Shown in pieces: positions 6,367 through 34,833 of a DNA stretch of 44,913 nt. The position numbers and the translations under genes are program-made. The notes beneath the pieces were generated by a model, which did not search any database, had not been told where the DNA came from, and was given only the letters and a program-made list of their open reading frames with translations. This DNA is from Lentisphaerota bacterium (GTDB lineage Bacteria; Verrucomicrobiota; Kiritimatiellia; RFP12; JAAYLN01), in NCBI GenBank assembly GCA_012521875.1, contig JAAYLN010000006.1:1-44913 (forward strand), given 5' to 3'. Each line of letters opens with the position of its first letter. Position 1 is the first letter of the stretch.

Positions 6367-6418
6367 CCGGGGATACCACGCGCTAGTAAAGAACCGACCT
6401 GTCTGATGAATCAGTTTA

Positions 6419-6454
6419 CGACAAAGTTACCGAGAAAGCTCGCGACAAAGTGGC
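6419..6454 (+). repeat. Three 12-bp CGACAAAG units, followed by a GC-rich palindrome
   Basis: Three adjacent 12-bp units, CGACAAAGTTAC, CGAGAAAGCTCG and CGACAAAGTGGC, share the core CGACAAAG, which is the reverse complement of the CTTTGTCG core found in arrays throughout the window. At 6472-6493 lies a degenerate copy of the GC-rich palindrome (module A) seen complete at 13371, 25611, 33902 and 34810. The gap between the acyltransferase and the next gene (6367-6505) holds little else. Confidence 0.75.
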
Positions 6455-6505
6455 GTCTCTCACCCTTTCCAGCCGCCCCGCGGGGGCGGTGGCGTTAATG
6501 AAGAC

Positions 6506-8410: not shown

Positions 8411-8456
8411 GGAAGCGACTGCACACTTAGTCGCCTTACGCCTACTCTTTCGTTTT

Positions 8457-8492
8457 CGACAAAGTGACCGACAAAGCTCGCGACAAAGTAGG
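8457..8492 (+). repeat. Three 12-bp CGACAAAG units
   Basis: Units CGACAAAGTGAC, CGACAAAGCTCG and CGACAAAGTAGG follow each other without spacers, the same layout as at 6419-6454. A single CACTTAGTCG (the A-variant core) precedes them at 8424-8433. They sit in the 218-bp gap between the NagA-like gene and the promoter of the methyltransferase gene. Confidence 0.75.
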
Positions 8493-13352: not shown

Positions 13353-13493
13353 GGTTCAGGGTTCAGTGGAGCCGCTGCCCTGCAGGGCGGCGGCAGTAGC
13401 AGTAGGCAGTAGCAGTAGGCAGTTATTGCGACCACACAGTGGCTCGCAATTTAGAGGGTAAAAGCGCTGCGCTGCCCTTTCGCCGCCCAGTGG
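13353..13493 (+). repeat. Composite repeat, copy 1: modules A, B and C
   Basis: The first part of a modular element seen again at 25611, 33651-33925 and 34365-34833. It starts with GGGTTCAGT. Module A is a 24-bp palindrome at 13371-13394 (arms GCCGCTGCCC and GGGCGGCGGC). Module B is a run of AGTAGGC-type heptamers with repeating CAGTAG (13395-13428). Module C (13429-13493) opens with a hairpin whose arms are ATTGCG..CCAC and GTGG..CGCAAT, followed by TTTAGAGGGTAAAAGCGCT. Open frames across it are read-through artefacts. Confidence 0.85.
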
Positions 13494-13584
13494 CACACCT
13501 TGTCTCAACACCTTGTCTCCACACTTTGTCTCCACGCTTTGTCGGCTACGCTTCGTCCCCCCACTTTGTCCCTACGCTTTGTCG
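13494..13584 (+). repeat. Module D: seven tandem 13-bp units
   Basis: Seven adjacent 13-bp units with no spacer, from CACACCTTGTCTC through CACACTTTGTCTC and CACGCTTTGTCGG to CTACGCTTTGTCG. The core is C(T/C)TTGTC. The period is not a multiple of three, so the array does not encode a repeated peptide. It directly follows module C, as in copy 2 at 25719-25834. Confidence 0.88.
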
Positions 13585-13760
13585 AAAGTCGTCTCCGGAG
13601 GCGGATACGGAGATCCGCCACAACGAAAAAGGCTCTGGGCGGGCGCGAGCCGCGGAGAAGTCTTGGGTAAGGGTTCACTTTGTCGTTTTGTCGGTAACTT
13701 TATCGGAAGCAGTCTCTGTTGGCGGACACGGAGGTCGGCCCGACAAAGCCGGGCGCTGGA
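13585..13760 (+). repeat. Degenerate CTTTGTCG units and small hairpins
   Basis: Near 13601-13617 GGCGGAT and ATCCGCC form a hairpin. At 13677-13711, CACTTTGTCG, TTTTGTCGGT and AACTTTATCGG are weak copies of the 12-bp array unit. A similar hairpin-like stretch with TCGG/CCGA follows near 13719-13745. The rest up to 13860 is unassigned. Confidence 0.5.
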
Positions 13761-13867
13761 GGTGTCGCGGGTTAGGTGCTATCATACCGTATCCCCGCCC
13801 CCACGGCCAACCCGAAACCCGAAAGCCGGGAGCCGAAAGCCGGGAGTCTCTTGCAAAACCATCGTGG

Positions 13868-13973
13868 CATGGGCGTCCCGCCCATGGATGGATCACGGGC
13901 AGGATGCCCGTGCCACATGCCCGCAGGCAAGGGTTCCGGCTGAAGCGCCCGTGGCATGGGCGTCCCGCCCATG
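13868..13973 (+). repeat. Three REP-like hairpins
   Basis: Perfect 8-bp stems with 3-nt loops: CATGGGCG-TCC-CGCCCATG at 13868-13886 and again at 13955-13973, and between them CACGGGCA-GGA-TGCCCGTG at 13894-13912. Such short palindromes resemble REP elements. No T-run follows on either strand in the right place, so they are not simple rho-independent terminators. Confidence 0.75.
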
Positions 13974-14012
13974 GCCGGATAAAAAAAAGATGAAAAAAGA
14001 GCGCTACACCTA

Positions 14013-14041
14013 TTGACTTGCGGTGTCAGAAAGTGTTTAAT
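14013..14041 (+). promoter_or_regulatory. Sigma-70-type promoter of the dcw operon
   Basis: TTGACT (14013-14018) and TTTAAT (14036-14041) are spaced by 17 bp. Transcription would start near 14048, about 15 nt before the chosen mraZ ATG at 14063. I saw no clear TGGGN direct repeats of the type MraZ binds in other bacteria. Confidence 0.65.
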
Positions 14042-14062
14042 GGTGGCACCAAAGGTCAAGAA

Positions 14063-14539
14063 ATGTCAGACGGAGACGACAAGGTTGTATCGCAGGGGCG
14101 CGCCGGTTCGCTACTGGGGCGTTTTCCCTGCCGTCTTGACCCCAAGCGGCGGATCACGATTCCGGCGACTTTCCGCAACCGCATGGGCAACCCTACCTAT
14201 GTCTACGTCCTCCCGGACCTCAACCGGCTCAACTGCCTCAACATCTTTCCGCCGGATGAGCTCGAGGCCCGTCTCGACAAGCTGCGTGCTTCGGCGCTGA
14301 CCGATAAGCGGGTCTCGGAGTTCGTGACCTGGGTAGGCTCGATTTCGGAGACGCTGGATGTTGATTCGCAGGGCCGCATCAGGATCTGCGATACCTTGCT
14401 TAACCGCATAGGCGTGAAGCGTGACCTGGCACTGATCGGAGCCTTCAACCGTATCCAGGTATGGGCGGAGGAGTCGGCACCGGCAGAGCAGGAAGCCTTC
14501 GAGAAGTTCGCCGATGCGGCCAGGGAGATAGGTTTTTAA
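14063..14539 (+). CDS. mraZ: MraZ, transcriptional regulator of the division/cell-wall cluster
   Basis: The first gene of the dcw cluster; MraZ is a ring-forming DNA-binding protein that represses its own operon in several bacteria. The 158-residue product has two AbrB-like halves: GRFPCRLDPKRRITIPATFR near residues 18-37 and TLDVDSQGRIRI followed by LALIGAFNRIQVW near 95-135. The start at 14063 has AAAGG about 9 nt upstream and puts the first AbrB motif at the usual distance. The longer frame from 14018 would begin within the promoter, before the predicted transcription start. rsmH follows 16 bp downstream, the conserved order. Confidence 0.9.
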   Translation: MSDGDDKVVSQGRAGSLLGRFPCRLDPKRRITIPATFRNRMGNPTYVYVLPDLNRLNCLNIFPPDELEARLDKLRASALTDKRVSEFVTWVGSISETLDVDSQGRIRICDTLLNRIGVKRDLALIGAFNRIQVWAEESAPAEQEAFEKFADAAREIGF

Positions 14540-14555
14540 CCATGCAGGTGGCACC

Positions 14556-15557
14556 ATGCATATTCCGGTCATGTTGCAGGAGACAGTAGACTGCCTGGCA
14601 GTCCGTCCCGGCGGCGTCTATCTGGACGCCACCCTGGGCGAGGCCGGCCATGCCGTCGAGATCCTGCGCCGTGCCGCTCCCGGGGGCCGTCTGCTGGGCA
14701 TCGACCGCGATCCGGTAGCCATCGCGCGCGCTTCGGCGCGCCTGCAGGAGGCAGCGCCGGGTGCCGCGGTCTGCGTGCAGGGCAACCATGCCGATCTGGG
14801 TGTACTGGCGGATGAGCACGGCTTTCCGGCGCTGGACGGCGTTGTGATCGACACGGGCGTCTCCTCGGGGCAGCTTGACGAGGCGGAGCGCGGCTTCAGC
14901 TTCATGCGGGACGGCCCGCTCGACATGCGAATGGATCCGACACGCGGCGAGACGGCCGCGGAGCTGCTGGCGCGCCTCGACGCGGAGGGGCTGGCGGAGT
15001 GTTTCCGCACGCTGGGCGAGGAGCCGGGCGCCATGCGGATAGCCCGCGCGATCATCCGCGAGCGCGAACGGCGGCCGATCACGACCACGCTGCATCTGGC
15101 GGAGGTTGTCACGCGCGCCCTTGGCGGGCGCGGCAACTACCGTCGGCATCCGGCCACGCGCGTCTTCCAGGCGCTGCGGATGGCCGTGAATGGCGAGCTG
15201 GAGGCGCTGGAGGCGGCGCTCGAGGCGGCGCTGACGCGCCTGCGTCCGGGTGGACGGATGGCCGTCATCACCTTCGAGAGCCTGAACGACCGCCTGGTCA
15301 AGCAGACCTTCACGGAGCACGTGGGACGCGAGATTTCGCTGCAGCAGGGCGGCTCGCGCTGGGAAGGGCGTCTGCCGCGCATGACCTGGGTCGCGCGCCG
15401 CGCCATGCGGCCCGCGGAAGAAGAGGTGCGCCGCAACCCGCGCGCACGCGGCGCCAAACTGCGTGCCGTCAGCCGCCCGGCAGGCGGCGAAGAGAGTTTT
15501 AGGGATCGGGTGCCCCAGAGCACCCTGAAGACAACTTACACAGGAGAAATTGTATGA
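14556..15557 (+). CDS. rsmH: 16S rRNA (cytosine-1402-N4)-methyltransferase RsmH (MraW)
   Basis: Methylates N4 of C1402 in the 16S rRNA P-site region using SAM. The 333-residue protein has the family start HIPVMLQETVDCL, the SAM-binding YLDATLGEAGHA (residues about 22-33), LLGIDRDPVA, DGVVIDTGVSSGQLDEAERGFSF in parts, and the C-terminal VITFESLNDRLVKQTF. Length is close to normal. Its stop overlaps the start of the ftsL-like gene (ATGA). The mraZ-rsmH-ftsL-ftsI order is the classic dcw arrangement. Confidence 0.95.
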   Translation: MHIPVMLQETVDCLAVRPGGVYLDATLGEAGHAVEILRRAAPGGRLLGIDRDPVAIARASARLQEAAPGAAVCVQGNHADLGVLADEHGFPALDGVVIDTGVSSGQLDEAERGFSFMRDGPLDMRMDPTRGETAAELLARLDAEGLAECFRTLGEEPGAMRIARAIIRERERRPITTTLHLAEVVTRALGGRGNYRRHPATRVFQALRMAVNGELEALEAALEAALTRLRPGGRMAVITFESLNDRLVKQTFTEHVGREISLQQGGSRWEGRLPRMTWVARRAMRPAEEEVRRNPRARGAKLRAVSRPAGGEESFRDRVPQSTLKTTYTGEIV

Positions 15558-15922
15558 GACTCACTAAAAGAACAAGGCGCAACCGCAAAAGAAAGCTCCA
15601 CTCCGCCGTATCAATGCCGCGGCGCTGGGCCAGTCTGCTGCTGGTGATGCTCGGCTTCGGCCTCATCTACGTGCTGGCCGACACCGCATGCCGTGGGATC
15701 AGCGAGAATATCCGCGCCCTGGAGAGCGAGCAGGAGGACATTGCCTTCAAGCTGCGCCGCGAGCAGAACCGCTGGAGCCTGATGACCACCAGTGATCAGA
15801 TCGAGCTTGCACTCAACCGTCATGGCCTGGACATGACACTGCCGCGTGGCGAGCAGGTCGTGCGCCTTGATGCCGCGTCCGGTGGCGACTACCGTCCGCG
15901 CGACCAGTTTGCCAACCGCTAG
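15554..15922 (+). CDS. FtsL-like small bitopic division protein
   Basis: A 122-residue protein with a very basic N-terminus (KRTRRNRKRK), one membrane segment near residues 27-45 (SLLLVMLGFGLIYVLAD) and a short periplasmic helix (ISENIRALESEQEDI) that can form a leucine-zipper-like coiled coil. FtsL is poorly conserved in sequence, and the call rests on this topology, the size and the position between rsmH and ftsI. In other bacteria FtsL joins FtsB and FtsQ to activate FtsWI at the septum. The start overlaps the rsmH stop. Confidence 0.75.
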   Translation: MRLTKRTRRNRKRKLHSAVSMPRRWASLLLVMLGFGLIYVLADTACRGISENIRALESEQEDIAFKLRREQNRWSLMTTSDQIELALNRHGLDMTLPRGEQVVRLDAASGGDYRPRDQFANR

Positions 15923-15963
15923 CATCATCGCCCGTCCCAATGGACGGGCGGCGGGGGAGAAAG

Positions 15964-17663
15964 ATGCCGGTGAAAGGCCAAAGGTTGCGCTTCTGGGCCG
16001 TACCCGCCCTGTTGCTCGGCTGGTACCTGCTGCTGGTCGTGCGGGCTGCCCACCTGCATCTGGGTGACCACACACCCCGCAATCGTTTTGTCTTGAAGCG
16101 CAGTCTGCCCGCCGCGCGCGGGTTCATATACGACCGCGCGGGGCGGCCGCTGGCCATTACACAGCCCGGCCGACGCATCTTTCTCGACTACTCCTGCCTT
16201 GCCACAAACCACAACGTGCCCAGGATCGCCTCGGTCGTCGCGGAGCTGACCGGGCGCGACACCGATGCGGTGCTGCTGGACTTCCGTTCGCGCCGCTCCA
16301 AGTACATGGTGCAGGGCATCAGCTTCGACGACCGCGCGCTTGAACTGGTGACCAACAAGACCATCTACAGCGGCGTGGGGCTGGAACGCGTGATGCGGCG
16401 GCAGTATCCGCTGGGACGTTGTCTCTCGCATGTCATCGGCTTCGTGAACCGGTATGAGGATGGGTTGGCCGGCATCGAGTGGCAGTACAACCGGTACCTG
16501 CGGGGAACAGACGGCTTCATCGAAAGCACGCGGGACGGCGACGGGTACGAAATCCGCTCGCGCCGCGCCACCACCGCAGACCCGATAGACGGTGCCCACG
16601 TCCACCTTACCATTGACCAGACGCTGCAGAAGAAGGCGGAGGAGATTCTGGCGGAGGGCGTGGCGCACGCCAATGCCGTCGGCGGGCAGGTCATCGTGCA
16701 GTTGGTCAAGACCGGCGAGATACTCGTCATGGCCGCGCTCCCCGACTTCGACCCGTCACACTACCGCGATGTGCCCTCGAAAGTCTGGAACAACCCCAAC
16801 ATCTGCTCAGTTTACGAGCCGGGCTCGACCATGAAGTCGATAATTGTGGCCGCCGCACTTAACGAGGGGCTTATCACACCCGACTCGGTCTTCGATGTCG
16901 GTCACGGCTCGTGGCACTATGGTGGCCATATTCTGCGCGACAAGGTCTACGGTCGCGTGGATGTGCGCACCATCCTGAAGAAGTCGAGCAACATCGGTGC
17001 CGCCATGATCGGGCTGCTACTGGGCAACCGGCGCATGGAGTGCTACCTGCGCGGCTTCGGTTTCGGCGAGCCGCTGGGCATCGATCTCCCGGGCGAGGCG
17101 CGTGGCCTCCTAAAGCCGTCCTCGCGCTGGTCAACGGTCACGCCAACCCGTATCGCGATCGGCCAGGGCGTCTCGGTAACCGCACTGCAGATGCTCAACT
17201 CCTACTGCACAATCGCCAACGGCGGGCACCTCATGCGTCCCTATGTGGTCTCAAAGGTTGTCTCCCCGAGCGGCGAGACGATCCTGCAAAACGGCCCGAC
17301 GGTTATCGGGCGCCCCATCCGGCCGGCAGTCGCCGCCCAGGTGCGCGAAATGCTCGTCTCGGTTACCGAGGGGGGCACGGGACGCCGCGCGGCCGTCGAG
17401 GGCTACACCATCGCCGGCAAGACCGGCACGGCGCAGCAGGTGGTCAACGGCGCCTATTCGCAGACCGACTACTGGGCCTCGTTCGTCGGTTTCGTGCCCG
17501 CCGAGGATCCCGTTTTCGGCATGCTCGTGGTCATCGACCGCCCCCGCGGTCTGCGGACGGGCGGTGCCGTCTCGGCCCCCGTCTTCTCGCGGCTGGCCCT
17601 CGTCGTGGCGCGCTATCTTGAACTACCCATCACGGCACCGTCGGACGCCGAGCTGGAGGCACT

Positions 17664-17667
<4 letters not shown>
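15964..17667 (+). CDS. ftsI: Division-specific transpeptidase FtsI (PBP3, class B)
   Basis: Septal peptidoglycan cross-linking enzyme working with FtsW. The 567-residue protein has one N-terminal membrane anchor (residues about 9-30), the class B dimerisation domain (ARGFIYDRAGRPLA near 51-64) and the penicillin-binding domain with all three motifs: S288-T-M-K, S341-S-N and K486-T-G. The ATG at 15964 is preferred because GGGGGAGA sits just upstream; a frame open from 15940 would add eight residues. Its stop overlaps the murE start (ATGA). No C-terminal PASTA domain is present. Confidence 0.93.
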
Positions 17668-19119
<1,452 letters not shown>

Positions 19120-19130
<11 letters not shown>

Positions 19131-20571
19131 AGTCACCACGCCCCTGCTGACGGATCAGCCCTTCGATCCGCATGAACTGGCTGCCTGGTGCGGCGGAACC
19201 TGGGATGCGCCACCGGAAATCATCCGCGGCGTGATGCACGACAGCCGCGCCATCCGTCCGGGCAACCTCTACGTGGCCCTGCCGGGCGCGACGGTTGATG
19301 GTCATGCCTTCGTGGCGCAGGCCTTGCAGGCGGGCGCTGCCGGTGCGCTGGTGCAGGCCGGCTGGCAGCCGGAAACCGCGGCGGATACATCACGGCACCT
19401 GCTGCGCGTGCCCGCGACGCTACCGGCGCTGATGGATCTCGGCCGAGGCTACCGCCGCGCCGTCGCCCCCTTCATGATCGGCGTCACCGGCAGTGTCGGC
19501 AAGAGCACGGTCAAGGAGTGGACGGCCGCGCTGCTGGCGAGCACCTATCCCACCGCCGCCACCTGCGGCAACTTCAATACCGACATCGGCCTGCCGCTCA
19601 GCCTGCTGCAGATGCCGCGTCAGACCGGGTACGGAGTCTTCGAGCTCGGCATCAGCCATCCCGGCGAGCTGCGTCCGCTCTGCGGCGTGCTGGAGCCCGA
19701 CGCGGCGATTATCAGCATGATCGGCCCGGTGCATCTCGAGTTCTTTGGCAAGATCGAGGCCATTGCCGATGAGAAGGCCGAGCTGCTGCGCGCCGTGCCG
19801 CAGTCGGGATTCGCCGTGCTGGATGCGGATGCACCGCTATTCGACTTCCTGCGGCTGCAGACGCGCGCACGCGTGATCACGGTGAGCCGCGCGGGTGCCG
19901 CGGCCGACTACCAGGCCACGGCGATTGATGCGCGCACGGGGAGTTTCCGCGTGCAGGGTGCGGCCGTGGACGGCGTGATCGAACTGCGGCTCGGCGTTCC
20001 CGGCGAGCACCAGGTGCTAAACGCGTTGCTGGCCGTGGCTGCGGCACGCGCCTGCGATGTACCGTGGGAGGCCATTGCCGAGGCCCTGCCGCGGCTGCCG
20101 CGCATGACCATGCGCTGGGAGCAGAGCGAGTGGCGCGGTGTGACGATTGTCAACGACGCCTACAACGCCAATCCCGTCTCCATGGAGGCCGCCATCAGGA
20201 CCTTCGCACGGGTGGCCGAGGGACACCGGCGGCTGCTGGTGCTGGGCGAAATGCGCGAGTTAGGCGACAATGCGGCGGCCTTCCATGCCGCGAGCGGTAC
20301 CGCCGTGGCGGCCAGCGGATGCGAGGTGCTCATAGCCGTGGGCGCTGCGGGCGCATGGATTGCCGAGGCCGCGCTTGAACACGGTTTTTGCGGAAAGATC
20401 GTGCGGGTGGCGGACGCCGATGCGGCGGGCGAGGCACTGGCCGCACTGGCCGTGCCGGGCGACTGGGTATTGCTGAAGGCCTCCCGCGGCGTGCATCTGG
20501 AGCGGGCGGTGGCACGCTGGCAGCAAGGCGTACCTGCCGAACCGGCGCGGAAGGATGGTGCTACGCCATGA
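19120..20571 (+). CDS. murF: UDP-MurNAc-tripeptide:D-Ala-D-Ala ligase (MurF)
   Basis: Adds the D-Ala-D-Ala dipeptide to complete the cytoplasmic pentapeptide precursor. The 483-residue protein has DSRAIRPGNLYVALPG in the substrate domain, the P-loop GSVGKST (124-130), GNFNTDIGLPLSLL near 150-163 and the C-terminal VNDAYNANPVSM. Size is normal. It overlaps murE by 11 bp and murD by 4 bp. In most dcw clusters mraY lies between murF and murD; here there is no room for it. Confidence 0.94.
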
Positions 20572-21911
20572 AGGATACGGCCAGATTCGTCCATCAGCGC
20601 GCCTGCGTGCTGGGGGGGGGCGTCAGCGGCATCGCCGCGGCACGGCTGCTGGCGCTGCATGGCGGGTGCGTGACACTGCTGGACGCGGCCCCGGAGGCGC
20701 AACTCACACAGGCACGCGAAGCGCTGGCGGGGAGCGGCGTGCTGCTGCGGGGCGGCGTGGGCGAGACGTTGCCGGACGAGCCCTTCACGCTCTGCATCGC
20801 CAGTCCATCGTTCGCGCCGGAGCACCCCTGGCTGCGTGCCTGCGCGGAGCGCGGCATCCCCGTGGCCGGCGAGATGGAGCTGGGCTACGCCTTCTGGCGT
20901 GGCAAACTGCTGGCGGTAACCGGCAGCAAGGGCAAGAGCTCGGTCGTGAAACTCTGTGCCGAGACCCTGACGGCCGCCGGGCTGGAAGCCGTGCCGGCCG
21001 GCAACTACGGCCTGCCGCTGAGCGCCTGCGTGCTGGATCACCCCGCCCTGCCGTGGGCAGTGGTAGAGGTGAGTTCCTTTCAACTGGAGCAGGTGGCGGC
21101 CTTCCGCCCCGATGTGGCGATCCTGCTGAACCTGCAGGCTGACCATCTGGACCGGCACGGTACAATGGAGACCTACGCGCGGCTCAAGTTCCGCCTCTTC
21201 GCGCAGCAGGGTGCCGGCGATCACGCGATGCTGCCGGAGGGGATGGATGTACCGAAGCCGCTGCCGCCCGGACTCGCGGTACAGACCTTCGGCAGCAGTG
21301 GCGATGCCTCGTGGCGCTACACGCCAGGCCGCATCACGGGCGAGGCCGGTGGTACAGCCGTCACACTGGATTTTGCAGGGACCTGGTTCGACAATCCGGT
21401 GCTCGGCAAGGCGGCGTCCGCCGCAGCCGGAGCCTTATGCGCCTGCGGCCTGATGCCCGCGCAGATCGGGGCCGGGCTGGCGGCCTTCCGCCCCCTGCCC
21501 CACCGCATGCAGCGCCTTGGCACGCACAATGGTGTGGTATATATTAACGACTCCAAGGCAACTAGTTTGACAGCACTGGCGGCAGCCCTTAATATGACAC
21601 TTGAACCAGTACGTCTTATCGCGGGCGGGCGCTTGAAAGAGTACGATCTGGACGCGGTAAAAGAGGTGCTGGCATTAAGAGTCAAAAAGGTTTATCTTAT
21701 TGGCGAATCGACCCATGCCCTATTGAAGGCATGGTCGCCGGTGGTTGATTGTGCCGACTGCGGCGACATGGCGAGGGCCGTGGCGCAGGCGGCACTCGAG
21801 GCGGCACCCGGAGAGGCAGTCCTGCTCTCCCCGGGGTGCGCCAGCTTCGACCAGTTTGACGGGTATGCGCAGCGTGGCGACTGTTTCGCCCGCCTGGTGC
21901 AGAGGTTGTAA
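20568..21911 (+). CDS. murD: UDP-MurNAc-L-alanine:D-glutamate ligase (MurD)
   Basis: Adds D-glutamate to UDP-MurNAc-L-Ala. The 447-residue protein starts with a Rossmann-like ACVLGGGVSGIAAARLL, has the P-loop TGSKGKSS (118-125), GNYG (145-148) where GNIG is commoner, VEVSSFQLE, and the C-terminal INDSKATS and LLSPGCASFDQFDGY. The frame is open upstream to 20388, but that reads murF in another phase; the ATG overlapping the murF stop (ATGA) is right. Bases about 21536-21715, inside the C-terminal domain, use more AT-rich codons than the rest of the gene (for example a run TATATATTAACGA), which is unexplained. Confidence 0.94.
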   Translation: MKDTARFVHQRACVLGGGVSGIAAARLLALHGGCVTLLDAAPEAQLTQAREALAGSGVLLRGGVGETLPDEPFTLCIASPSFAPEHPWLRACAERGIPVAGEMELGYAFWRGKLLAVTGSKGKSSVVKLCAETLTAAGLEAVPAGNYGLPLSACVLDHPALPWAVVEVSSFQLEQVAAFRPDVAILLNLQADHLDRHGTMETYARLKFRLFAQQGAGDHAMLPEGMDVPKPLPPGLAVQTFGSSGDASWRYTPGRITGEAGGTAVTLDFAGTWFDNPVLGKAASAAAGALCACGLMPAQIGAGLAAFRPLPHRMQRLGTHNGVVYINDSKATSLTALAAALNMTLEPVRLIAGGRLKEYDLDAVKEVLALRVKKVYLIGESTHALLKAWSPVVDCADCGDMARAVAQAALEAAPGEAVLLSPGCASFDQFDGYAQRGDCFARLVQRL

Positions 21912-21937
21912 AAGACGGCATGACGAGGAAAAGCGAG

Positions 21938-22909
21938 ATGAAGAGCAATGGTTTCACCAGGATTATTTTTGGCGTAGCCGCCGTGATCGGGTTCGGCCTG
22001 GTACAGGGCTGTTCCACGATCCATAGCGGCGGAGAGGCTGAGGACATGCGGTTGCGTCCGATGCCAGAGGCGCTCGAGCCGGCACCGATAGAGGTGGTGC
22101 AACCGGTCGTTATCGAGAGTCCAGTCGCCACTACGCGGCCCGTGACACCCCCCGCGCCAGTGGCGCGTCCCGAACTGACCACCTCCTATACCGTGAAGGC
22201 GGGCGACACCCTCTCCGGCATTGCCTACCGCTACAAGCTGCGCTGGCAGGATGTGGCGGCCGTCAACCCCGGCATCAACCCCAACCGCCTGCTGGTGGGC
22301 GAGGTCATCCAGCTTCCCGGCAAGGTGGATGTCGCCAAGCCCGCCCGTGCGCTCCCCGCCAAGTCCGCGGCCAAGGCAGCCGCCGGCGGCTACACGGTGA
22401 AGGCCGGCGACTCGCTCTCGGTCATCGCCCATCGCCACGGCATCAAGACCGCCGATCTCAAGAAGGCCAACAACCTGACGAGCGACAGCATCTTCGCCGG
22501 CCAGAAGCTGGTCATCCCAGGTGGCAAGACCACCGCGACGGTAAAGTCGCTCACGACGGCGAAGCCCCCGGCGCAGTCGCCCCAGCAGGTTAAGCAGCCG
22601 GCTCCGGTTGCACCGCCCACCCCGACGCTTGACGCGCTCGAGCTGCCGACGCCGGCCGCTCCGGTCATTGAAGCGCCTGCGGCACCCGATGCACCACCGG
22701 TTCCGCCCCTGCCTGCACCGACCGCTGCCAAGCCTGCGGAGACCACCGGTTACCAGACCCACATCGTGGCCAATGGCGAGGATCTATACTCCGTGGCCGT
22801 ACGCTGGTGCGTGAGCCTCGAAGCCCTCAAGGCCGCCAACAACCTGACGAGCCATGAGCTGACACCCGGCACCGTGCTGAAGATCCCGCCGGCACCGACG
22901 GACAACTGA
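21938..22909 (+). CDS. LysM-domain lipoprotein, peptidoglycan-binding
   Basis: A 323-residue exported protein. A signal peptide of about 24 residues ends in GLVQGC, a slightly atypical lipobox with Cys as the predicted lipidated residue. Three LysM domains follow, each beginning with the YTVKAGDTLS-type motif: at roughly residues 85-130, 150-195 and 270-320. They are separated by proline/alanine-rich linkers. LysM binds N-acetylglucosamine chains, so this protein probably tethers the outer or inner membrane to the wall at the septum (role inferred from position between murD and ftsW). There is no peptidase domain. The ATG at 21938 has GAGGA upstream; an ATG at 21920 would add six residues. 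Confidence 0.85.
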   Translation: MKSNGFTRIIFGVAAVIGFGLVQGCSTIHSGGEAEDMRLRPMPEALEPAPIEVVQPVVIESPVATTRPVTPPAPVARPELTTSYTVKAGDTLSGIAYRYKLRWQDVAAVNPGINPNRLLVGEVIQLPGKVDVAKPARALPAKSAAKAAAGGYTVKAGDSLSVIAHRHGIKTADLKKANNLTSDSIFAGQKLVIPGGKTTATVKSLTTAKPPAQSPQQVKQPAPVAPPTPTLDALELPTPAAPVIEAPAAPDAPPVPPLPAPTAAKPAETTGYQTHIVANGEDLYSVAVRWCVSLEALKAANNLTSHELTPGTVLKIPPAPTDN

Positions 22910-22929
22910 TTGACTAGGGAACCTGCGGC

Positions 22930-24057
22930 GTGCGGCGGACTGTCACACTCTTTCTTTGTGCGCTGGCCCTGCTCGTGACCGCAGGCCTCATCCTGGTCTA
23001 TAGCGCCAGCTCGACCTACTACCGGAACAGCCCCAACCATTTTGTGATACGCCAGGGAATCGCCCTGGCGTTGAGCCTGTGCGTGGGTATAGTGGTGGCG
23101 CGGATCGACTACCACTTCTGGTCGCGCCCCTGGGTTTTGACACTTATCACGATCCTGACGCTGGCCGGTCTTTGCGCGGTTTTTCTCTTTCCCGTAGTCA
23201 AGGGCAGCCGCCGGTGGATCGACCTCCGCATCTACAGTGTGCAGCCGAGCGAGTTCGCCAAGATCAGCATCCTGATCGTTCTGTCCACCTGGTTCGACCG
23301 CGTGGGGCCGCGATCATCCAGCTTCCTGCGCGGATTTCTTATCCCGGGGCTGATCGTGGCGGTGATGACGGCTCCCATACTCCTGGCACCCGACCTGGGC
23401 GCGACAGCGGTAATCGTGGTCGTGGCCGCCACGGTCTTTCTGGCGGCAGGCACGCGGCTGAGCTACATGTTCGCCTCCGTGCCGGTGGCAATCGGCGGAT
23501 TGGTGCTCATCCTGCTCAAGGACGCGCACCGCAGGGGGCGCATGATGGACTTTTTGGCCGGACTTTTCGGAAAGGATGGCGCACAGGCGTACCAGACGAT
23601 ACAGTCGCTCAATGCCTTTGTCATCGGCGGCCCCCTCGGCGTGGGGCTCAACAACAGCATCCAGAAGTACCGCTATCTGCCCGAGGCGCATACCGATTTC
23701 ATCTACGCCATCGCCGGCGAGGAGCTGGGCCTGGCTGCCTCGCTCATCATCATCCTGCTCTTCGGCATACTGCTGATCTGCGGCACCCGGATCGCCAGCC
23801 GCGCACCCGACCGCCTCGGGCGCTTCCTGGGACTGGGCCTGACGGTACTGCTCTGCTTCGAGGCGGGCTTCAACATGGGCATGGTCATGGGATGCCTGCC
23901 CACCAAGGGGCTGGCGCTCCCCTTCGTCAGCTACGGCGGCTCAAGCCTGATGGCCTCGATGATCGCCGTCGGGATGCTGCTCAACATCGCCCGGCAGAGC
24001 TTTGTGGCCGAAGCCGAAGCGCCATCCAGCATGCGCAACGCCTTGCAACACATCTGA
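22930..24057 (+). CDS. ftsW: SEDS glycan polymerase FtsW
   Basis: Septal peptidoglycan polymerase acting on lipid II with FtsI. The 375-residue protein is polytopic with family motifs KGSRRWIDL, QPSEFAKIS, APDLGATAVI, EAHTDFIYAIAGEELG (including the conserved Asp thought to be catalytic) and LPTKGLALPFVSYGGSSL. It starts with GTG. It is called FtsW rather than RodA because it lies in the dcw operon with ftsI and because a separate rodA is present at 39965-41170. murG and murC, often next, do not follow. Confidence 0.93.
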   Translation: MRRTVTLFLCALALLVTAGLILVYSASSTYYRNSPNHFVIRQGIALALSLCVGIVVARIDYHFWSRPWVLTLITILTLAGLCAVFLFPVVKGSRRWIDLRIYSVQPSEFAKISILIVLSTWFDRVGPRSSSFLRGFLIPGLIVAVMTAPILLAPDLGATAVIVVVAATVFLAAGTRLSYMFASVPVAIGGLVLILLKDAHRRGRMMDFLAGLFGKDGAQAYQTIQSLNAFVIGGPLGVGLNNSIQKYRYLPEAHTDFIYAIAGEELGLAASLIIILLFGILLICGTRIASRAPDRLGRFLGLGLTVLLCFEAGFNMGMVMGCLPTKGLALPFVSYGGSSLMASMIAVGMLLNIARQSFVAEAEAPSSMRNALQHI

Positions 24058-24088
24058 CAACCTAACCACACTTGATCGGAGATTAACC

Positions 24089-25345
24089 ATGGGCATCAGC
24101 CTCGGACTCGTAGGACTCGGCAGTTTCGGCTCCTGTTTCGCACCGCTCTTCAAGAACCACCCCTGGGTTGACCGCATCGGCCTGTGCGATACCGAGCCGG
24201 ACCGCGTGGCGCGCTTTTTCAAGGATCCCTTCTATGCCGACAAGGTCAGCGAGGCCGACTGCTTCTCGTCGCTCGACGAAATCTGCCGTGCCGATTTCGA
24301 TGCGCTCGTGATCATCACCCAGCCCTGGCTGCACGCGCCACAGTGCATCCAGGCCATGGAGAGCGGCAAGCACGTCTACAGCGCCGTGCCCATCATCAGC
24401 ATCCCCGACGACGACGAGACGCTCGACTGGTGCGACAAGCTGGTGGATACCGTCAAGCGTACCGGACAGCAGTACATGCTGGGCGAGACCACCTACTACC
24501 GTCCGCAGGCGCAGTTCTGCCGCCGCATGGCAAAGTCGGGCAGCTTCGGCGACTTTGTCTACGCCGAGGGCGAGTACTTCCATGACGTCGATAGCGGCTG
24601 CAACCTGCGCCAGGTCAACGCCTCGCGCGCCAACAGCAAGCCCGGACGCGAGTGGCAGGAACTGCGCCAGAAATACATCCGGGTCGGCCATCTCTCGGGC
24701 CCCATGCACTACCCCACCCACTCCACCAGCGGTCCCGTCTGCGTCATGAATGCGCACGCGGTCGAGGTCACGGCCTATGGCTACCGCAACCGCACAAACG
24801 ACCCCTTCTTTGCCGACAGCGCCTTCTCCAACGAGATGGCGCTCTTCCGCATGAGCAACGGCGCGACCGTGCGCATCTGCGAGATGCGCGAGACCCCCGG
24901 ATGTCCCGGCCATGAGAGCGAGACCTTCCGCGTCTTCGGCACCCTGGGCAGTTTCTCCGAGAACCGCTGGTGGAGCATCAAGCGTCCCGACTTTGCGAAT
25001 ATCGATCTCGAGGCACTGCCCAAGCCTGAGTACCGCGCCCTCAAGGAGCAGGAGATGTTCGATCCCCTGCCCCCCGAGGTCGAGCTGGCCTTCAAGCAGG
25101 CGTACAATCCGGAAAAGAGCATGGACGAGCTGCGCGAGAGCGACTTCCACCCCTGGGGCCATGGCGGCTCGCACCCCTATCTGGCCCACGAGTTCGTCTC
25201 GGCCGTGCGCGACAACCGCATTCCGGCAATCAACATCTGGGAATCCGTGCGCTACATGGCCATGGGCATTGCCGCCCACCGCTCCGCGTTGAAAGATGGC
25301 GAGACGCTGCCAGTACCGGACTGGGGCGATGCACCCTCGGCTTAG
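24089..25345 (+). CDS. Gfo/Idh/MocA-family oxidoreductase-like protein
   Basis: A 418-residue NAD(P)-binding protein of the Gfo/Idh/MocA family. The Rossmann motif is G9-L-G11-S-F-G14, followed by an acidic GLCDTEPDR. Where most family members have an E-K-P motif carrying the catalytic lysine, this one reads SGKHVYSAVPI, so the lysine is missing. Either the enzyme uses another residue or it acts on a different kind of substrate, or it is a non-redox relative. The start at 24089 (after GGAGA) is where homology begins; an upstream frame is open to 24002 but runs into ftsW. Location after ftsW suggests co-expression, not a division role. The substrate is unknown, probably a sugar derivative. Confidence 0.82.
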   Translation: MGISLGLVGLGSFGSCFAPLFKNHPWVDRIGLCDTEPDRVARFFKDPFYADKVSEADCFSSLDEICRADFDALVIITQPWLHAPQCIQAMESGKHVYSAVPIISIPDDDETLDWCDKLVDTVKRTGQQYMLGETTYYRPQAQFCRRMAKSGSFGDFVYAEGEYFHDVDSGCNLRQVNASRANSKPGREWQELRQKYIRVGHLSGPMHYPTHSTSGPVCVMNAHAVEVTAYGYRNRTNDPFFADSAFSNEMALFRMSNGATVRICEMRETPGCPGHESETFRVFGTLGSFSENRWWSIKRPDFANIDLEALPKPEYRALKEQEMFDPLPPEVELAFKQAYNPEKSMDELRESDFHPWGHGGSHPYLAHEFVSAVRDNRIPAINIWESVRYMAMGIAAHRSALKDGETLPVPDWGDAPSA

Positions 25346-25361
25346 TGAACCCCCAACTGCC

Positions 25362-25646
25362 ATGCAGGAAATCAAGCTCTTCGTGCTCCAGGGCTGCTCC
25401 TACTGCCACCGGGCACGCGAGATGATCGACGCCATTCTGGCCGAGCATCCCGAGTATGCCAAGGTGCCCCTCACGGTGATTGACGAGTGGCAACAGCCCG
25501 ACATTGCCGACAAGTACGACTACTACTACGTGCCCTCGATCTTCATCGGCGATGAGAAGCTGATGGAAGGCCCGCCCTCCCGCAAGGCCATCGAGGCAGC
25601 CTTCGCCAAGGCCGCCGCCCCGCGGGGCGGCGGCAGTAGGCAGTAG
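25362..25646 (+). CDS. Glutaredoxin/thioredoxin-like protein with a repeat-derived tail
   Basis: A 94-residue thioredoxin-fold protein with a C12-S-Y-C15 redox motif and a likely cis-proline at Pro58 (YYYVPSIFIGD). Small proteins of this kind reduce disulfides or glutathione adducts; the partner is unknown. It begins 16 bp after the oxidoreductase. The last residues (about 83-94, ending APRGGGSRQ) are encoded by the 24-bp GC palindrome at 25611-25634 and the start of the AGTAGGC module, so the tail comes from the dispersed repeat, not from the protein family. The unmodified domain ends near residue 82. Confidence 0.82.
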   Translation: MQEIKLFVLQGCSYCHRAREMIDAILAEHPEYAKVPLTVIDEWQQPDIADKYDYYYVPSIFIGDEKLMEGPPSRKAIEAAFAKAAAPRGGGSRQ

Positions 25647-25718
25647 GCTGTGGCAGTTATTGCGACCACACAGTGGCGCGCAATTTAGAGGGTAAAAGCG
25701 CTGCGCTGCGCCCAGTGG
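25611..25718 (+). repeat. Composite repeat, copy 2: modules A, B and C
   Basis: Palindrome A lies at 25611-25634, inside the end of the glutaredoxin-like gene. AGTAGGC heptamers (B) follow to about 25655. Module C (25656-25718) carries the same hairpin (ATTGCG..CCAC / GTGG..CGCAAT) and the same TTTAGAGGGTAAAAGCGCT stretch as copy 1, but it lacks a short CCTTTCGC segment present there. Confidence 0.85.
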
Positions 25719-25834
25719 CACACCTTGTCTCCACACCTTGTCTCCACACTTTGTCTCCACACCTTGTCTCCACACCTTGTCTCTACACCTTGTCGGTTAC
25801 GCTTCGTCCCGCACTTTGTCCCTACGCTTTGTCG
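25719..25834 (+). repeat. Module D: nine tandem 12-13 bp units
   Basis: Units CACACCTTGTCTC (25719, repeated exactly several times), CACACTTTGTCTC, TACACCTTGTCGG, TTACGCTTCGTCC, a 12-bp CGCACTTTGTCC and CTACGCTTTGTCG. The last three units match the last three of copy 1, while the number of CACACCTTGTCTC units differs, so the array expands and contracts at its CCTTGTCTC side. Confidence 0.88.
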
Positions 25835-25863: not shown

Positions 25864-25897
<34 letters not shown>

Positions 25898-25990
25898 AGA
25901 CCTCCGGCACTACCGGAACTGGCGACAGGTATCGACGGGTATCGACAGGTGGCGACATGATCGATGGCCATCTGCGAATGGTGTCCCAAT

Positions 25991-26099: not shown

Positions 26100-26485
26100 A
26101 CTCAACCCCCATCGACCCCGGCCGACCCCCGTCGACCCCCGTCGAAGCTGATTGCCGACGGTGGCGCCCCCACCATCACCATCCTGCCAGAGCCACCCAC
26201 TCAAATCCGCGGACATCTGCGACATATGCGCCTGCAAAGCATGACATCTGCGGTTGAACCAATTCCCCTCTTGGCGTCCTTGGCGTCTTGGCGGTTCAAA
26301 ACATCATCCTCTAACAGCATCTCCCCTTCCGCGCAAATCCGCGAAATCCGTAGCTCTCCCCCTCCGCGCAAATCCGCGTCATCCGTAGCTCAAAAAACCA
26401 GTCGCAGCCACCGCATCGCGCATGATCCCGCGCGCAGCTCCCCAATCACAAATCTAAAATCAAATCCAAAATCTTCCCGCCCACC
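26100..26485 (+). repeat. Gene-free mosaic of short dispersed motifs
   Basis: No gene is supported here. It contains near-repeats of CCCCGTCGACC (about 26101-26145), a CTTGGCG motif at 26270-26297 (one mismatch in 28 to the reverse complement of 28605-28632) and two 27-bp copies of an AATCCGCG-containing motif at 26329-26355 and 26364-26390 that differ at two positions. The last 30 bp before the HNH gene are A-rich and otherwise plain. Confidence 0.65.
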
Positions 26486-28439: not shown

Positions 28440-28690
28440 GAGACGCCACTTTGACGCGAGCTTTATCGGTAACTTTGTCGCCCTTGTCGCCTGCTGTCGA
28501 TTATTTCTCACAGAGGCACGGAGGCACAGAGGCGCGGAGGAGTTCTAAAGTTCGGAAGTTCTAAAGTTTGGCTGCCGCCTGTACCGAGCCGCCCTGCTGG
28601 TGTCGAACCGCCAAGACGCCAAGGCCGCCAAGGGGATTTGATTTAGATTTGTGATTTGCGACTTGTGACTTGTGATTTGGCAGTGGCTTC
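28440..28690 (+). repeat. CTTTGTCG units and other dispersed motifs upstream of citrate synthase
   Basis: About 28446-28500 holds CACTTTGACG, GAGCTTTATCGG, TAACTTTGTCG and CCTTGTCG, weak 12-bp units. At 28511-28542 CACAGAGGCACGGAGG repeats itself with small changes. AGTTCTAAAGTT occurs twice near 28542-28568. At 28605-28632 is the CTTGGCG motif in reverse. No gene is supported. Confidence 0.65.
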
Positions 28691-28973: not shown

Positions 28974-29096
28974 GCCTATCATCCGGCGAAAAGACGCCTT
29001 ATTCCATGACTATGTCCCGCCCCTTCAGGGCTAGTCATTTTTTTGCCAGTTACCCAGGGCGTTGCCCTGGGCTGGTATATCGCGCCCCTTCAGGGC
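28974..29096 (+). repeat. Module H, copy 1 (two GCCCCTTCAGGGC hairpins around CCCAGGGCGTTGCCCTGGG)
   Basis: Begins GGCCTATCATCCGG, then GCCCCTTCAGGGC at about 29020, a T-run, the palindrome CCCAGGGC-GTT-GCCCTGGG with GCTGGTATATC, and a second GCCCCTTCAGGGC. The second copy is at 34134-34257. The frames it opens encode a GRCPGLVY-type peptide in two places, which is an artefact of the repeat. Confidence 0.8.
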
Positions 29097-29100
29097 TTTC

Positions 29101-29390
29101 ATCAACTTTGTCGCGAGCTTTGTCGTTAACTTTGTCGAAAGCTTAAGATTTAGCGGGTGGATGAAGTGTGCCGTTTAAGAGTGAGTTTAAGAGTGGGATT
29201 AAGTGGGTGCTGCGCGCCTACCACCTTGTCTCAACACCTTGTCTCCACACTTAGTCGCCGTACACTTAGTCGTCTTACACTTAGTCGCCGCACTTAGTCT
29301 TCCCTCTGTCTGTCCCTGAATTTCGACTAAGTGTTCGGACTAAGCGTGAAGCGACTAAGTGTGAGGACTAAGTGTGGGGGACTAAGTGTA
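29101..29390 (+). repeat. 12-mer array, module E and a large inverted CTTAGTCG array
   Basis: 29105-29140 has three 12-bp units (AACTTTGTCGCG, AGCTTTGTCGTT, AACTTTGTCGAA). Module E (29141-29220) carries TTTAAGAGTGAG-type 12-mers. Two 12-13 bp CCTTGTCTC units follow, then four units with the altered core CACTTAGTC (29246-29299). After a 24-bp centre, five units face the other way (CGACTAAGTG, 29323-29390). The two halves could form a long interrupted hairpin. No open frame here looks like a gene. Confidence 0.82.
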
Positions 29391-29457
29391 CCGCGAGTCG
29401 CACCAGAACAAGCTCAGGGTTCAGCGAACCGAAACGGCCGCCGTGTGGTGTCTCAGT

Positions 29458-33591: not shown

Positions 33592-33650
33592 TCGTGTTTC
33601 TCCCTGAATCCCGGGCTGAGACACCTCTTCAGGTGCCCATCTTTCGTGTT

Positions 33651-33925
33651 CGACAAAGTGTTGAGACAAGGTGTGGAGACAAGGTGTAAGTGCGAAGCAC
33701 CCACTTAAACCCACTCTTAAACTCTTAATCGGCACACTTAAACCACCCGCTTACTCTTCCGCTGCGACTATGATGGGACGAATGGGACGTAGGTACGACG
33801 GGATTTTCTCCACCCCATGCGCTCCCCATCTGCACGCGGCGGGGACGCCGCGTCTACCAGACGGCACTGCCTACTGCTACTGCCCACTGCCTACTGCCAT
33901 TGCCGCCGTCCTGCAGGGCAGCGGC
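33651..33925 (-). repeat. Composite repeat, copy 3: modules D, E, F, B and A (reverse)
   Basis: From left to right in the window: three units (CGACAAAGTGTT, GAGACAAGGTGTG, GAGACAAGGTGTA at 33651-33688), module E with a 4-nt deletion (33689-33775), module F with the hairpin CGCGGCG/CGCCGCG (33808-33862), the heptamers (33863-33901) and palindrome A at 33902-33925, ended by the complement of GGGTTCAGT. Module C is absent. It lies upstream of the exported protein gene. Confidence 0.85.
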
Positions 33926-34133: not shown

Positions 34134-34257
34134 GCCTATCATCCGGACATCAGCCCGTTTTCCCCGAACTATATCCCGCCCCTTCAGGGCTAGTCATTTT
34201 TTGCCCCTTTCCCCAGGGCGTTGCCCTGGGCTGGTATATCACGCCCCTTCAGGGCTG
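34134..34257 (+). repeat. Module H, copy 2
   Basis: Same order as 28974-29096: GGCCTATCATCCGG, GCCCCTTCAGGGC, T-run, CCCAGGGC-GTT-GCCCTGGG, GGTATATC and a second GCCCCTTCAGGGC. The centre is nearly identical, while the flanks have drifted. As in copy 1, a paired REP hairpin lies nearby. Confidence 0.8.
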
Positions 34258-34264
34258 CCCCAGA

Positions 34265-34324
34265 GTGGCGCGGACATTCCTGTCTGCGCGGGACTGCGCG
34301 GGCAGGCAGGAATGCCTGCCCCAC
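34265..34324 (+). repeat. Paired REP-like hairpins, copy 3, with compensatory changes
   Basis: The left hairpin is as in the other copies, but the right one reads GCAGGCA-GGAA-TGCCTGC where the others read GCAGACA-GGAA-TGTCTGC. One A-T pair has become G-C by changes on both sides, so the local hairpin is kept while pairing between the long arms is weakened by two positions. Confidence 0.85.
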
Positions 34325-34364
34325 ACTAGTCTGAAACACCATCAGCCGCTCTCTCTCTCGCTTT

Positions 34365-34833
34365 CGACAAAGCGTAGGGACGAAGTGCAGAGACGAAGCG
34401 TAGCCGACAAAGTGCGGAGACAAAGTGTGGAGACAAGGTGTTGATTGAGACAAGGTGTTGAGACAAAGTGTAAGTGCGAAGCACGCACTTAAACCCTCTC
34501 TTAATCTCACTCTTAATCGGCACGCTTAAACCACCCGCTTAATCTTCCGCTGCGGCTATGATGAGACAAATGGGACGCAGGTGTGGCGGTGCCGTTCTCC
34601 ACCCCATGCGCCCACATCTGCACGCGGCGGGGACGCCGCGTCTACCAGACGGCACTGCCTACTGCCACTGCCTACTGCCTCTGGCACCGGGCGGCGAAAG
34701 AGCAGCGCAGCGCTTTTACCCTCTAAATTGCGAGCCACTGTGTGGTCGCAATAATCGTCCCTGCCCACTGCCTACTGCCACTGCCACTGCCTACTGCCAC
34801 TGCCTACTGGCCGCCGCCCTGCGGGGCGGCGGC
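34365..34833 (-). repeat. Composite repeat, copy 4: fullest example, modules D to A (reverse)
   Basis: Eight D units (34365-34472, one with a 4-nt insertion), module E (34473-34555), module F (34597-34652), heptamers, module C with its ATTGCG/CGCAAT hairpin (34690-34756), heptamers again, and palindrome A at 34810-34833, which lies inside the 3' end of the TrmH-family gene. It shows every module in one place and gives the order A-B-C-B-F-E-D. Confidence 0.88.

What the first reader, a model, noticed from the sequence alone, without database searches (positions are those of the whole stretch)
13494..25834. Tandem 13-bp arrays with a CTTTGTC core and varying copy number
At 13494-13584 (7 units) and 25719-25834 (9 units) the arrays are spacer-free with a 13-bp period. 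The last three units match between arrays while the CACACCTTGTCTC units vary in number. Other sites (6419, 8457, 29105) use a 12-bp period with the same core. A constant core with a helical-turn-scale period is what a cooperative DNA-binding protein array would look like (inference).
Basis: partly seen in the sequence, partly recalled or inferred. Interest (0 to 1): 0.68.

Follow-up and report, generated by a model that had tools for sequence, protein, structure and literature searches.

The report
Repeat arms of four-helix protein elements
The short repeated DNA blocks in this window are gene-less copies of the repeat "arms" that flank a small four-helix protein gene elsewhere in the same genome; the length of the repeat unit (about 7 or about 12-13 letters) follows whether that protein has one or two domains, which offers a testable explanation for puzzling short repeats seen in several bacterial phyla.

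Summary
The arrays are real: 7 and 9 units, spacing almost always 13 bp, fixed tail, variable head. They belong to a genome-wide family (364 hits of a two-unit pattern, 0 of its reversed control; about one array per 6 kb) found patchily in class Kiritimatiellia only. They are not stand-alone. In the same genome (contig C236) the same sequences form inverted arms around a two-domain PF05635 gene (23S rRNA-intervening-sequence protein, IVP; Avd-like fold), and those arms match the arrays of the window while the gene matches nothing there. All 9 double-IVP genes found by protein search alone in 145 genomes have inverted array arms (control genes 6/361). Single-IVP genes have arms too, but with 7-bp units, also in Cyanobacteria and Bacteroidota; double-IVP arms have 12-14 bp units. 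Arm sequence drifts freely, unit length does not. One window array sits in a 136-bp insertion missing from two relatives. Best reading: ORF-less copies of an IVP element related in layout to rRNA intervening sequences. That IVP binds or moves the arrays is inferred; in some relatives IVP rides in ISKra4-type MITEs.

The parts
13494..13584 (+). 13-bp array, 7 units (module C), ORF-less arm copy
   Evidence: 87.8% identical over 74 bp to the upstream arm of the double-IVP gene G000:C236 and 84.8-87.3% to its downstream arms in inverted orientation
25719..25834 (+). 13-bp array, 9 units (module C), ORF-less arm copy
   Evidence: 87.8% over 82 bp to the C236 upstream arm; the intergenic gap that holds it is about 930 bp here and about 95 bp in the same-genus genome G001
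13430..13493 (+). Shared leader before the array (GCGACCACACAGTGGCTCGCAATTTAGAGGGTAAAAGCGCTGCGCTG...)
   Evidence: Same sequence precedes the 25719 array and other genome copies
25658..25718 (+). Shared leader before the array
13392..13423 (+). GGCAGTA/GCAGTA array (7 and 6 bp words)
   Evidence: the same words flank, in inverted orientation, the single-IVP gene of G000:C16
25632..25657 (+). GGCAGTA array
6370..6505 (-). 136-bp insertion between two genes, carrying a 12-bp array (6419-6450)
   Evidence: Genes are 0-3 bp apart in G001 (same genus) and G003 (same family); array 93.9% over 33 bp to the C236 arm
8439..8489 (-). 12-bp array, module A
   Evidence: 86% to the C236 arm
13678..13706 (+). 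Short degenerate module A copy (CTTTGTCGTTTTGTCGGTAACTTTATCGG)
28448..28480 (+). 12-bp array, module A
   Evidence: 90.9% to the C236 arm
29053..29097 (+). Acido-Lenti-1 RNA (RF01687), neighbouring module
   Evidence: the same order of modules is found before the C236 double-IVP gene
29104..29137 (+). 12-bp array, module A
   Evidence: within the 234-bp match 29053-29286 to the C236 arm
29142..29221 (+). Module B (TTTAAGAGTGAG units, antisense-like)
   Evidence: arms of this type flank the double-IVP gene G011:C345
29222..29389 (+). Module C plus inverted pair of CTTAGTC arrays (29247-29299 sense, 29325-29389 antisense)
   Evidence: RNA fold of 29095-29400 z = -6.5; arms of CTAAGTG type flank the double-IVP gene G077:C36
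32271..32413 (+). Modules A and B, ORF-less
   Evidence: 80.9% over 136 bp to the C236 arm
33645..33762 (-). Modules B and C, ORF-less
   Evidence: 86.9% over 122 bp to the C236 arm
34212..34256 (+). Acido-Lenti-1 RNA (RF01687)
34325..34550 (-). Modules B and C with end tag GTGTTTCAGACTAGT (34325-34339)
   Evidence: 85.9% over 156 bp to the C236 arm; tag found 64 times in the genome with up to one mismatch

Best explanation
The arrays are ORF-less, dispersed copies of the inverted tandem-repeat arms of an IVP element. A complete element has the layout: tandem array - gene for a protein of the 23S rRNA-intervening-sequence family (PF05635, four-helix bundle, Avd-like) - the same array inverted. 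In this genome the complete double-domain element is on contig C236, and its arms match the arrays of the window. SHOWN: the layout at all double-IVP genes found; unit length about 7 bp for single-domain and 12-14 bp for double-domain genes; arm sequence drifts while unit length stays; hundreds of ORF-less copies in this genome; one window copy lies in an insertion absent from two relatives. INFERRED: that the IVP protein (related proteins form pentamer rings, and Avd works in an RNA-protein complex) recognises its arms as RNA or DNA with about one 6-7 nt unit per domain; that this link keeps unit length constant and lets element RNA or DNA be copied or moved; that ORF-less copies spread by using the protein or a transposase in trans; that unit number then varies by slippage or unequal exchange.
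For: Genome-wide family: 364 hits of CTTTGTCGNNNNCTTTGTCG in G000, 0 of the reversed control; 43 arrays of at least 3 units in 228 kb of sampled contigs. Arms of the C236 double-IVP element match the window arrays at E from 1e-67 to 1e-7 while the ORF matches nothing there. 14/14 double-IVP genes have inverted arms (score 34-94; 12/14 at least 50) against 6/361 control ORFs at 50 or more, p about 1e-16; for the 9 genes found by protein search alone 9/9, p about 1e-14. In G077, G090 and G104 the arm motif occurs only at the double-IVP gene, so the pairing is not chance closeness to an abundant repeat. Single-IVP genes: inverted flanks in 16/24 against 18/180 controls, 42 of 58 periodic flanks at 7 bp; double-IVP: 21 of 23 at 12-14 bp. 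Independent phyla: 7-8 bp arrays, mostly inverted, around single-IVP genes on plasmids of Nostoc, Anabaena, Geminocystis, Stanieria, Riemerella, Gemmatirosa, Leptolyngbya. Insertion with empty site in two relatives. Fold: domains match XCC0516 (2GSC, TM 0.85 over the target) and Avd (4DWL, TM up to 0.80 over the target). Coxiella's 23S rRNA IVS has 2-3 tandem heptamers before its single-domain S23 ORF and terminal inverted repeats (PMC4990558).
Against: No target-site duplication or transposase-bearing version was found for the G000 copies; the end tag gave no inverted pairs of IS length. The double IVP arose once, so the 12-14 bp rule rests on a single domain duplication. Some array-rich genomes show no double IVP (G015 none, G062 and G063 single only), though all are incomplete. 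Arms of G077, G090 and G104 are not dispersed. In G110 an IVP gene lies inside ISKra4-type MITEs and may only be a passenger. Background arrays in these genomes also have 7 or 12 bp periods, and some control loci were chosen for arrays. No binding or expression data exist.
Confidence: 0.66

Rival explanations
1. The repeats are ordinary MITE-like elements moved by IS transposases, and IVP genes are cargo that happens to sit in them.
For: In G110, G077 and G010 the TIR GGGCGCATGGCAGTTCTG bounds 155-650 bp elements, some carrying a single IVP gene, with 9-10 bp target duplications at several sites; a 1998-bp copy (L289) encodes an ISKra4-family transposase (NF033572, 208.4 bits, cut-off 205). 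In VGWJ contigs CTTTGTCG arrays lie inside other long terminal repeats.
Against: The same IVP-plus-inverted-array layout recurs with unrelated outer sequence in many genomes and phyla, and unit length follows IVP domain number; cargo alone does not predict that. No such TIR and no transposase-bearing copy was found for the G000 family.
Confidence: 0.35
2. Cooperative DNA-binding array for a chromosome-organising or regulatory protein.
For: Constant core, high copy number, intergenic position.
Against: Absent from most genomes of the same order (17 of 145 have it) and patchy even within the genus (7 against 364 hits); copies sit inside insertions; period varies 12-14 and is 7 in sister elements.
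Confidence: 0.1
3. RNA structures acting as terminators or mRNA-stability elements.
For: Inverted arrays fold strongly as RNA (window 29095-29400 z = -6.5; 34315-34500 minus strand z = -4.1); often in intergenic gaps.
Against: The single-orientation array at 25719 folds worse than shuffles (z = +2.0); array strand does not follow gene direction (6419 and 8457 are on the minus strand between plus-strand genes, 25719 on the plus strand after a plus-strand gene). A side effect is possible, not the origin.
Confidence: 0.1
4. Neutral slippage of a simple repeat.
For: Unit number varies between copies (3 to 14).
Against: Slippage does not explain hundreds of separate sites with the same fixed tail, leader and neighbouring modules, nor inverted arms around IVP genes.
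Confidence: 0.05

Closest known systems
23S rRNA intervening sequences (IVS) with S23/IVP ORF (Leptospira, Coxiella)
   Same: PF05635 gene between terminal inverted repeats; tandem heptamers of variable number just before the ORF in Coxiella (PMC4990558)
   Different: Here the elements are intergenic, not in rRNA; arms are multi-unit tandem arrays; a double-domain version has 12-14 bp units; hundreds of ORF-less copies
Heptanucleotide repeats of Calothrix and Nostoc (STRR, name from memory) and GGGAATC repeats of Xanthomonas/Nostoc (PMC4692102)
   Same: Intergenic short tandem arrays, high copy, inverted pairs common in Xanthomonas; heptamers flank IVP genes on cyanobacterial plasmids here
   Different: Window arrays have 12-13 bp units; no IVP link is mentioned in the paper read
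Avd of diversity-generating retroelements
   Same: Same four-helix fold (4DWL TM up to 0.80); homology of Avd and PF05635 noted in PMC10053308
   Different: No reverse transcriptase found by Pfam in the main ORFs of the 8.2-kb C236 contig; two fused domains
MITEs of ISKra4-type insertion sequences
   Same: Short copies with TIR and 9-10 bp target duplication, some with an IVP gene, in relatives
   Different: The G000 family has no such TIR or duplication demonstrated
REP/REPIN palindromes
   Same: Dispersed, intergenic, palindromic pairs
   Different: Tandem 12-13 bp units; RAYT association was not examined

Membership tests
23S rRNA intervening sequence (IVS) element | Located inside a 23S rRNA gene | tested here: not met
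   Window copies and C236 are intergenic among protein genes; Rfam finds no rRNA in the window or L191
23S rRNA intervening sequence (IVS) element | PF05635 / S23 ORF inside | tested here: met
   Met for G000:C236 and 13 other double-IVP loci; window copies lack the ORF
23S rRNA intervening sequence (IVS) element | Terminal inverted repeats forming a stem | tested here: met
   Inverted arms at 14/14 double-IVP genes
23S rRNA intervening sequence (IVS) element | Excised from RNA by RNase III | not testable with these tools
   Needs RNA data
PF05635 / TIGR02436 four-helix bundle family (for the C236 protein) | Profile score over curated cut-off in both halves | tested here: met
   TIGR02436 70.2 bits against cut-off 24, 2 stretches; PF05635 85.5 bits against 33.8, 2 stretches
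MITE | TIR plus target-site duplication plus an autonomous partner | tested here: inconclusive
   Met for the GGCGCATGGC family of G110; for G000 copies an end tag was found but no inverted IS-length pair or transposase partner, and no duplication was demonstrated
CRISPR array | Direct repeats separated by variable spacers | tested here: not met
   Arrays are spacer-free
Diversity-generating retroelement (Avd) | Reverse transcriptase next to the Avd-like gene | tested here: not met
   Main ORFs of the C236 contig: Tad pilus proteins or no family, no RVT; only 8.2 kb examined
STRR heptanucleotide repeats | 7-bp unit | tested here: not met
   Window arrays are 12-13 bp; the neighbouring GGCAGTA words are 7 bp
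REPIN | RAYT (Y1) transposase partner | not tested

The most novel reading that the evidence does not exclude
IVP/S23 proteins are the dedicated proteins of a cross-phylum class of small mobile elements, and they act as a ruler: each four-helix domain reads (or helps write) one 6-7 nt unit of its own arms whatever the sequence, so one domain gives heptamer arrays and two fused domains give 12-14-mer arrays. The unexplained excess of heptamer repeats in Nostoc, Xanthomonas and other bacteria would then be the footprint of these elements.
Probability: 0.3. Interest if true: 0.92.

Novelty: new variant of a known kind. Interest (0 to 1): 0.8.

Why it matters
Rehm et al. (PMC4692102) state that heptamer repeats are over-represented in many bacteria, that no detailed literature on them exists and that slippage had been proposed; the purpose and mobility of IVP/S23 genes have been open since the early 1990s (PMC4990558). 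A consistent link between IVP genes and inverted arrays, with unit length following domain number, ties the two puzzles together and makes both testable: by counting (unit length against domain number in all genomes) and by binding assays.

Tried and rejected
First idea that IVP copy number explains array number across the order: rejected, PF05635 is in 119/145 genomes whatever the arrays. Expectation that every double-IVP motif is amplified in its own genome: rejected for G077, G090, G104. Idea that the end tag GTGTCTCAGACTAGT is the TIR of an IS in G000: no inverted IS-length pairs. Acido-Lenti-1 RNA as a general part of IVP elements: rejected, found beside arrays in G000 only, none in 20 other loci with IVP genes. 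Phage origin: no match of the double IVP in 50,697 phage records. Double IVP on plasmids: none. Literature for an existing IVP-heptamer link: none found in ten searches, apart from the Coxiella heptamers. A domain tree was built to see whether the double form arose several times: it did not.

Full report
WHAT IS THERE. Both arrays are present as described: 7 and 9 units, core spacing 13 bp with single 12 or 14 bp steps. CTTTGTCG is 20-fold over-represented in the window, and arrays of at least three units do not appear in Markov simulations.

WHERE ELSE. The window is a contig of a 3.96-Mb metagenome genome, G000. A blastn search with one array gives 45 places in this genome although only 40 of 408 candidates were scored; the two-unit pattern gives 364 hits and its reversed control none. 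About one array per 6 kb is seen in contigs drawn evenly. In the order 17 of 145 genomes have the pattern, with large differences between near relatives; in the phylum 19 of 388, all in the same class. Named records show mostly Kiritimatiellia/Lentisphaerae/Verrucomicrobia bins; a few bear other labels, which may be misnaming. The same 12-mer CTTTGTCGYGAG occurs in many families of the class, often as an inverted pair with a short spacer.

THE PROTEIN. Among ORFs near arrays in 80 contigs, the family shared by most genomes was PF05635, 23S rRNA-intervening sequence protein, mostly in a tandem two-domain form, lying between inverted arrays or with an array as linker (DKARDK is the translated repeat). 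The window's own genome has one such double gene, on C236. It is preceded by an Acido-Lenti-1 RNA and modules A, B and C, and followed by inverted module C, with an ORF-less palindromic copy next to it. Its arms match the window arrays, 84.6% over 234 bp at 29053-29286 (E 1e-67) and 87.8% over 82 and 74 bp for the two reported arrays, while its ORF matches nothing in the window. So the window arrays are ORF-less copies of these arms.

IS THE LAYOUT GENERAL? A profile of the double IVP (A1) found nine full-length genes in 145 genomes (G077's is interrupted by masked bases). All nine have inverted arms with score at least 50; with five more from pattern-found contigs it is 14/14 with a score of 34 or more, 12/14 with at least 50, against 6 of 361 control ORFs (p about 1e-16, and 1e-14 for the nine). 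Arm motifs differ widely: CTTTGTCGCGAG, CACACTTCGTCC, GATCGTTGTCGC, CACTCTTGAACG, GGGTAAGTGTAGCC, GACTAAGTGTAGGA. In G077, G090 and G104 the motif is found only at the gene, so the association is not produced by abundant background repeats.

UNIT LENGTH AND DOMAIN NUMBER. Single-IVP genes of the order also have arms (inverted flanks 16/24 against 18/180), but with 7-bp units: 42 of 58 periodic flanks at 7; double-IVP flanks 21 of 23 at 12-14. Control flanks are periodic in 54/220 cases, mostly 7 or 12 bp, as expected in genomes full of these repeats. The best plasmid hits of a single IVP, taken without regard to repeats, show the same in other phyla: (CAGGGAA)n-IVP-(TTCCCTG)n in Nostoc, (GGGAGTA)n-IVP-(CTCCCTA)n in Nostoc edaphicum, AAGGTTT-type in Riemerella, 8-bp in Gemmatirosa and Leptolyngbya. 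Coxiella's IVS has 2-3 heptamers GACAGAT before its S23 ORF, variable between strains (PMC4990558). In G000 the GGCAGTA words that accompany the window arrays flank, inverted, a single-IVP gene on C16. The double form arose once, next to single forms whose arrays have 6-bp words, so the doubling of the unit is one event; what repeats independently is that the sequence changes while the unit length stays.

MOBILITY. The array at 6419 lies in a 136-bp insertion between two genes that are 0-3 bp apart in G001 and G003. The gap with the 25719 array is about 930 bp against about 95 bp in G001, filled with several repeat types. In other genomes of the order an IVP gene is the only ORF of short multi-copy elements with about 21-bp TIR and 9-10 bp target duplications; a 2-kb copy with the same TIR encodes an ISKra4 transposase. 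There, movement is explained by the transposase and IVP may be cargo. For G000 no such partner was found.

MECHANISM. Shown: layout, period rule, dispersal, insertion. Inferred: IVP recognises its arms. Support by analogy only: the modelled protein is two four-helix bundles joined by a disordered linker (pLDDT 84.7), each like XCC0516, which crystallises as a ring of five bundles (title of reference 25 in PMC10053308), and like Avd, which sits in a reverse-transcriptase RNA-protein complex (8UB7). A ring with about one 6-7 nt unit per domain would explain a fixed unit length with free sequence. This was not tested.

COMPARISON. It works like an rRNA IVS (IVP gene between inverted repeats with tandem words) but is not a member, since it does not lie in rRNA. 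It resembles the heptamer repeats of Nostoc and Xanthomonas, whose authors leave the origin open and mention no IVP. The helical-turn reading of the first stage is not supported.

LIMITS. All host genomes here are incomplete metagenome bins; exact ends of G000 copies are not settled; no within-species comparison was possible; the period rule was seen in one class plus twelve plasmid records and needs a full survey. The literature library holds open-access papers only, so an existing report of the IVP-repeat link in a subscription journal cannot be excluded.

Noticed in passing
window 29053-29097 and 34212-34256; L191 357-401; L031 8388-8432: Acido-Lenti-1 RNA (RF01687), function unknown, sits directly before the array modules in this genome, including the complete double-IVP element; not seen at 20 loci with IVP genes of other genomes.
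   Followed up: partly
window 13392-13423, 25632-25657, 33866-33898, 34654-34683, 34761-34809: GGCAGTA / ACTGCCT word arrays accompany the CTTTGTC arrays and match the inverted flanks of the single-IVP gene G000:C16.
   Followed up: partly
L289 744-2741 (G110:C21) and related L290-L307: ISKra4-family IS with TIR GGCGCATGGCAGTTCTG and dozens of 155-650 bp MITEs in G110, G077, G010, G029; some carry a whole or truncated IVP gene; 9-10 bp target duplications at several sites.
   Followed up: partly
G000, 64 sites such as window 34325-34339: Module end GGTGTCTCAGACTAGT, often followed by a GCCGCC hairpin and TTGGAACAGGTCAGAGACGCC: a separate palindromic linker that joins array modules.
   Followed up: partly
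window 25864-25957 and 26105-26473: Further repeat words in the same enlarged gap: CTCGTC x5.7, GCGACAGGTA, ACCCCCGCCG, a 35-bp repeat TCTCCCCCTCCGCGCAAATCCGCGAAATCCGTAGC.
   Followed up: no
L358, L360: Single-IVP genes with arms sit inside operons on cyanobacterial plasmids: between ribonucleotide reductase subunit genes, and between cas6 and cas4.
   Followed up: no
L054, L124: The array lies in frame inside the double-IVP gene and encodes the linker (DKARDKARDK); the 12-bp unit keeps the frame.
   Followed up: partly
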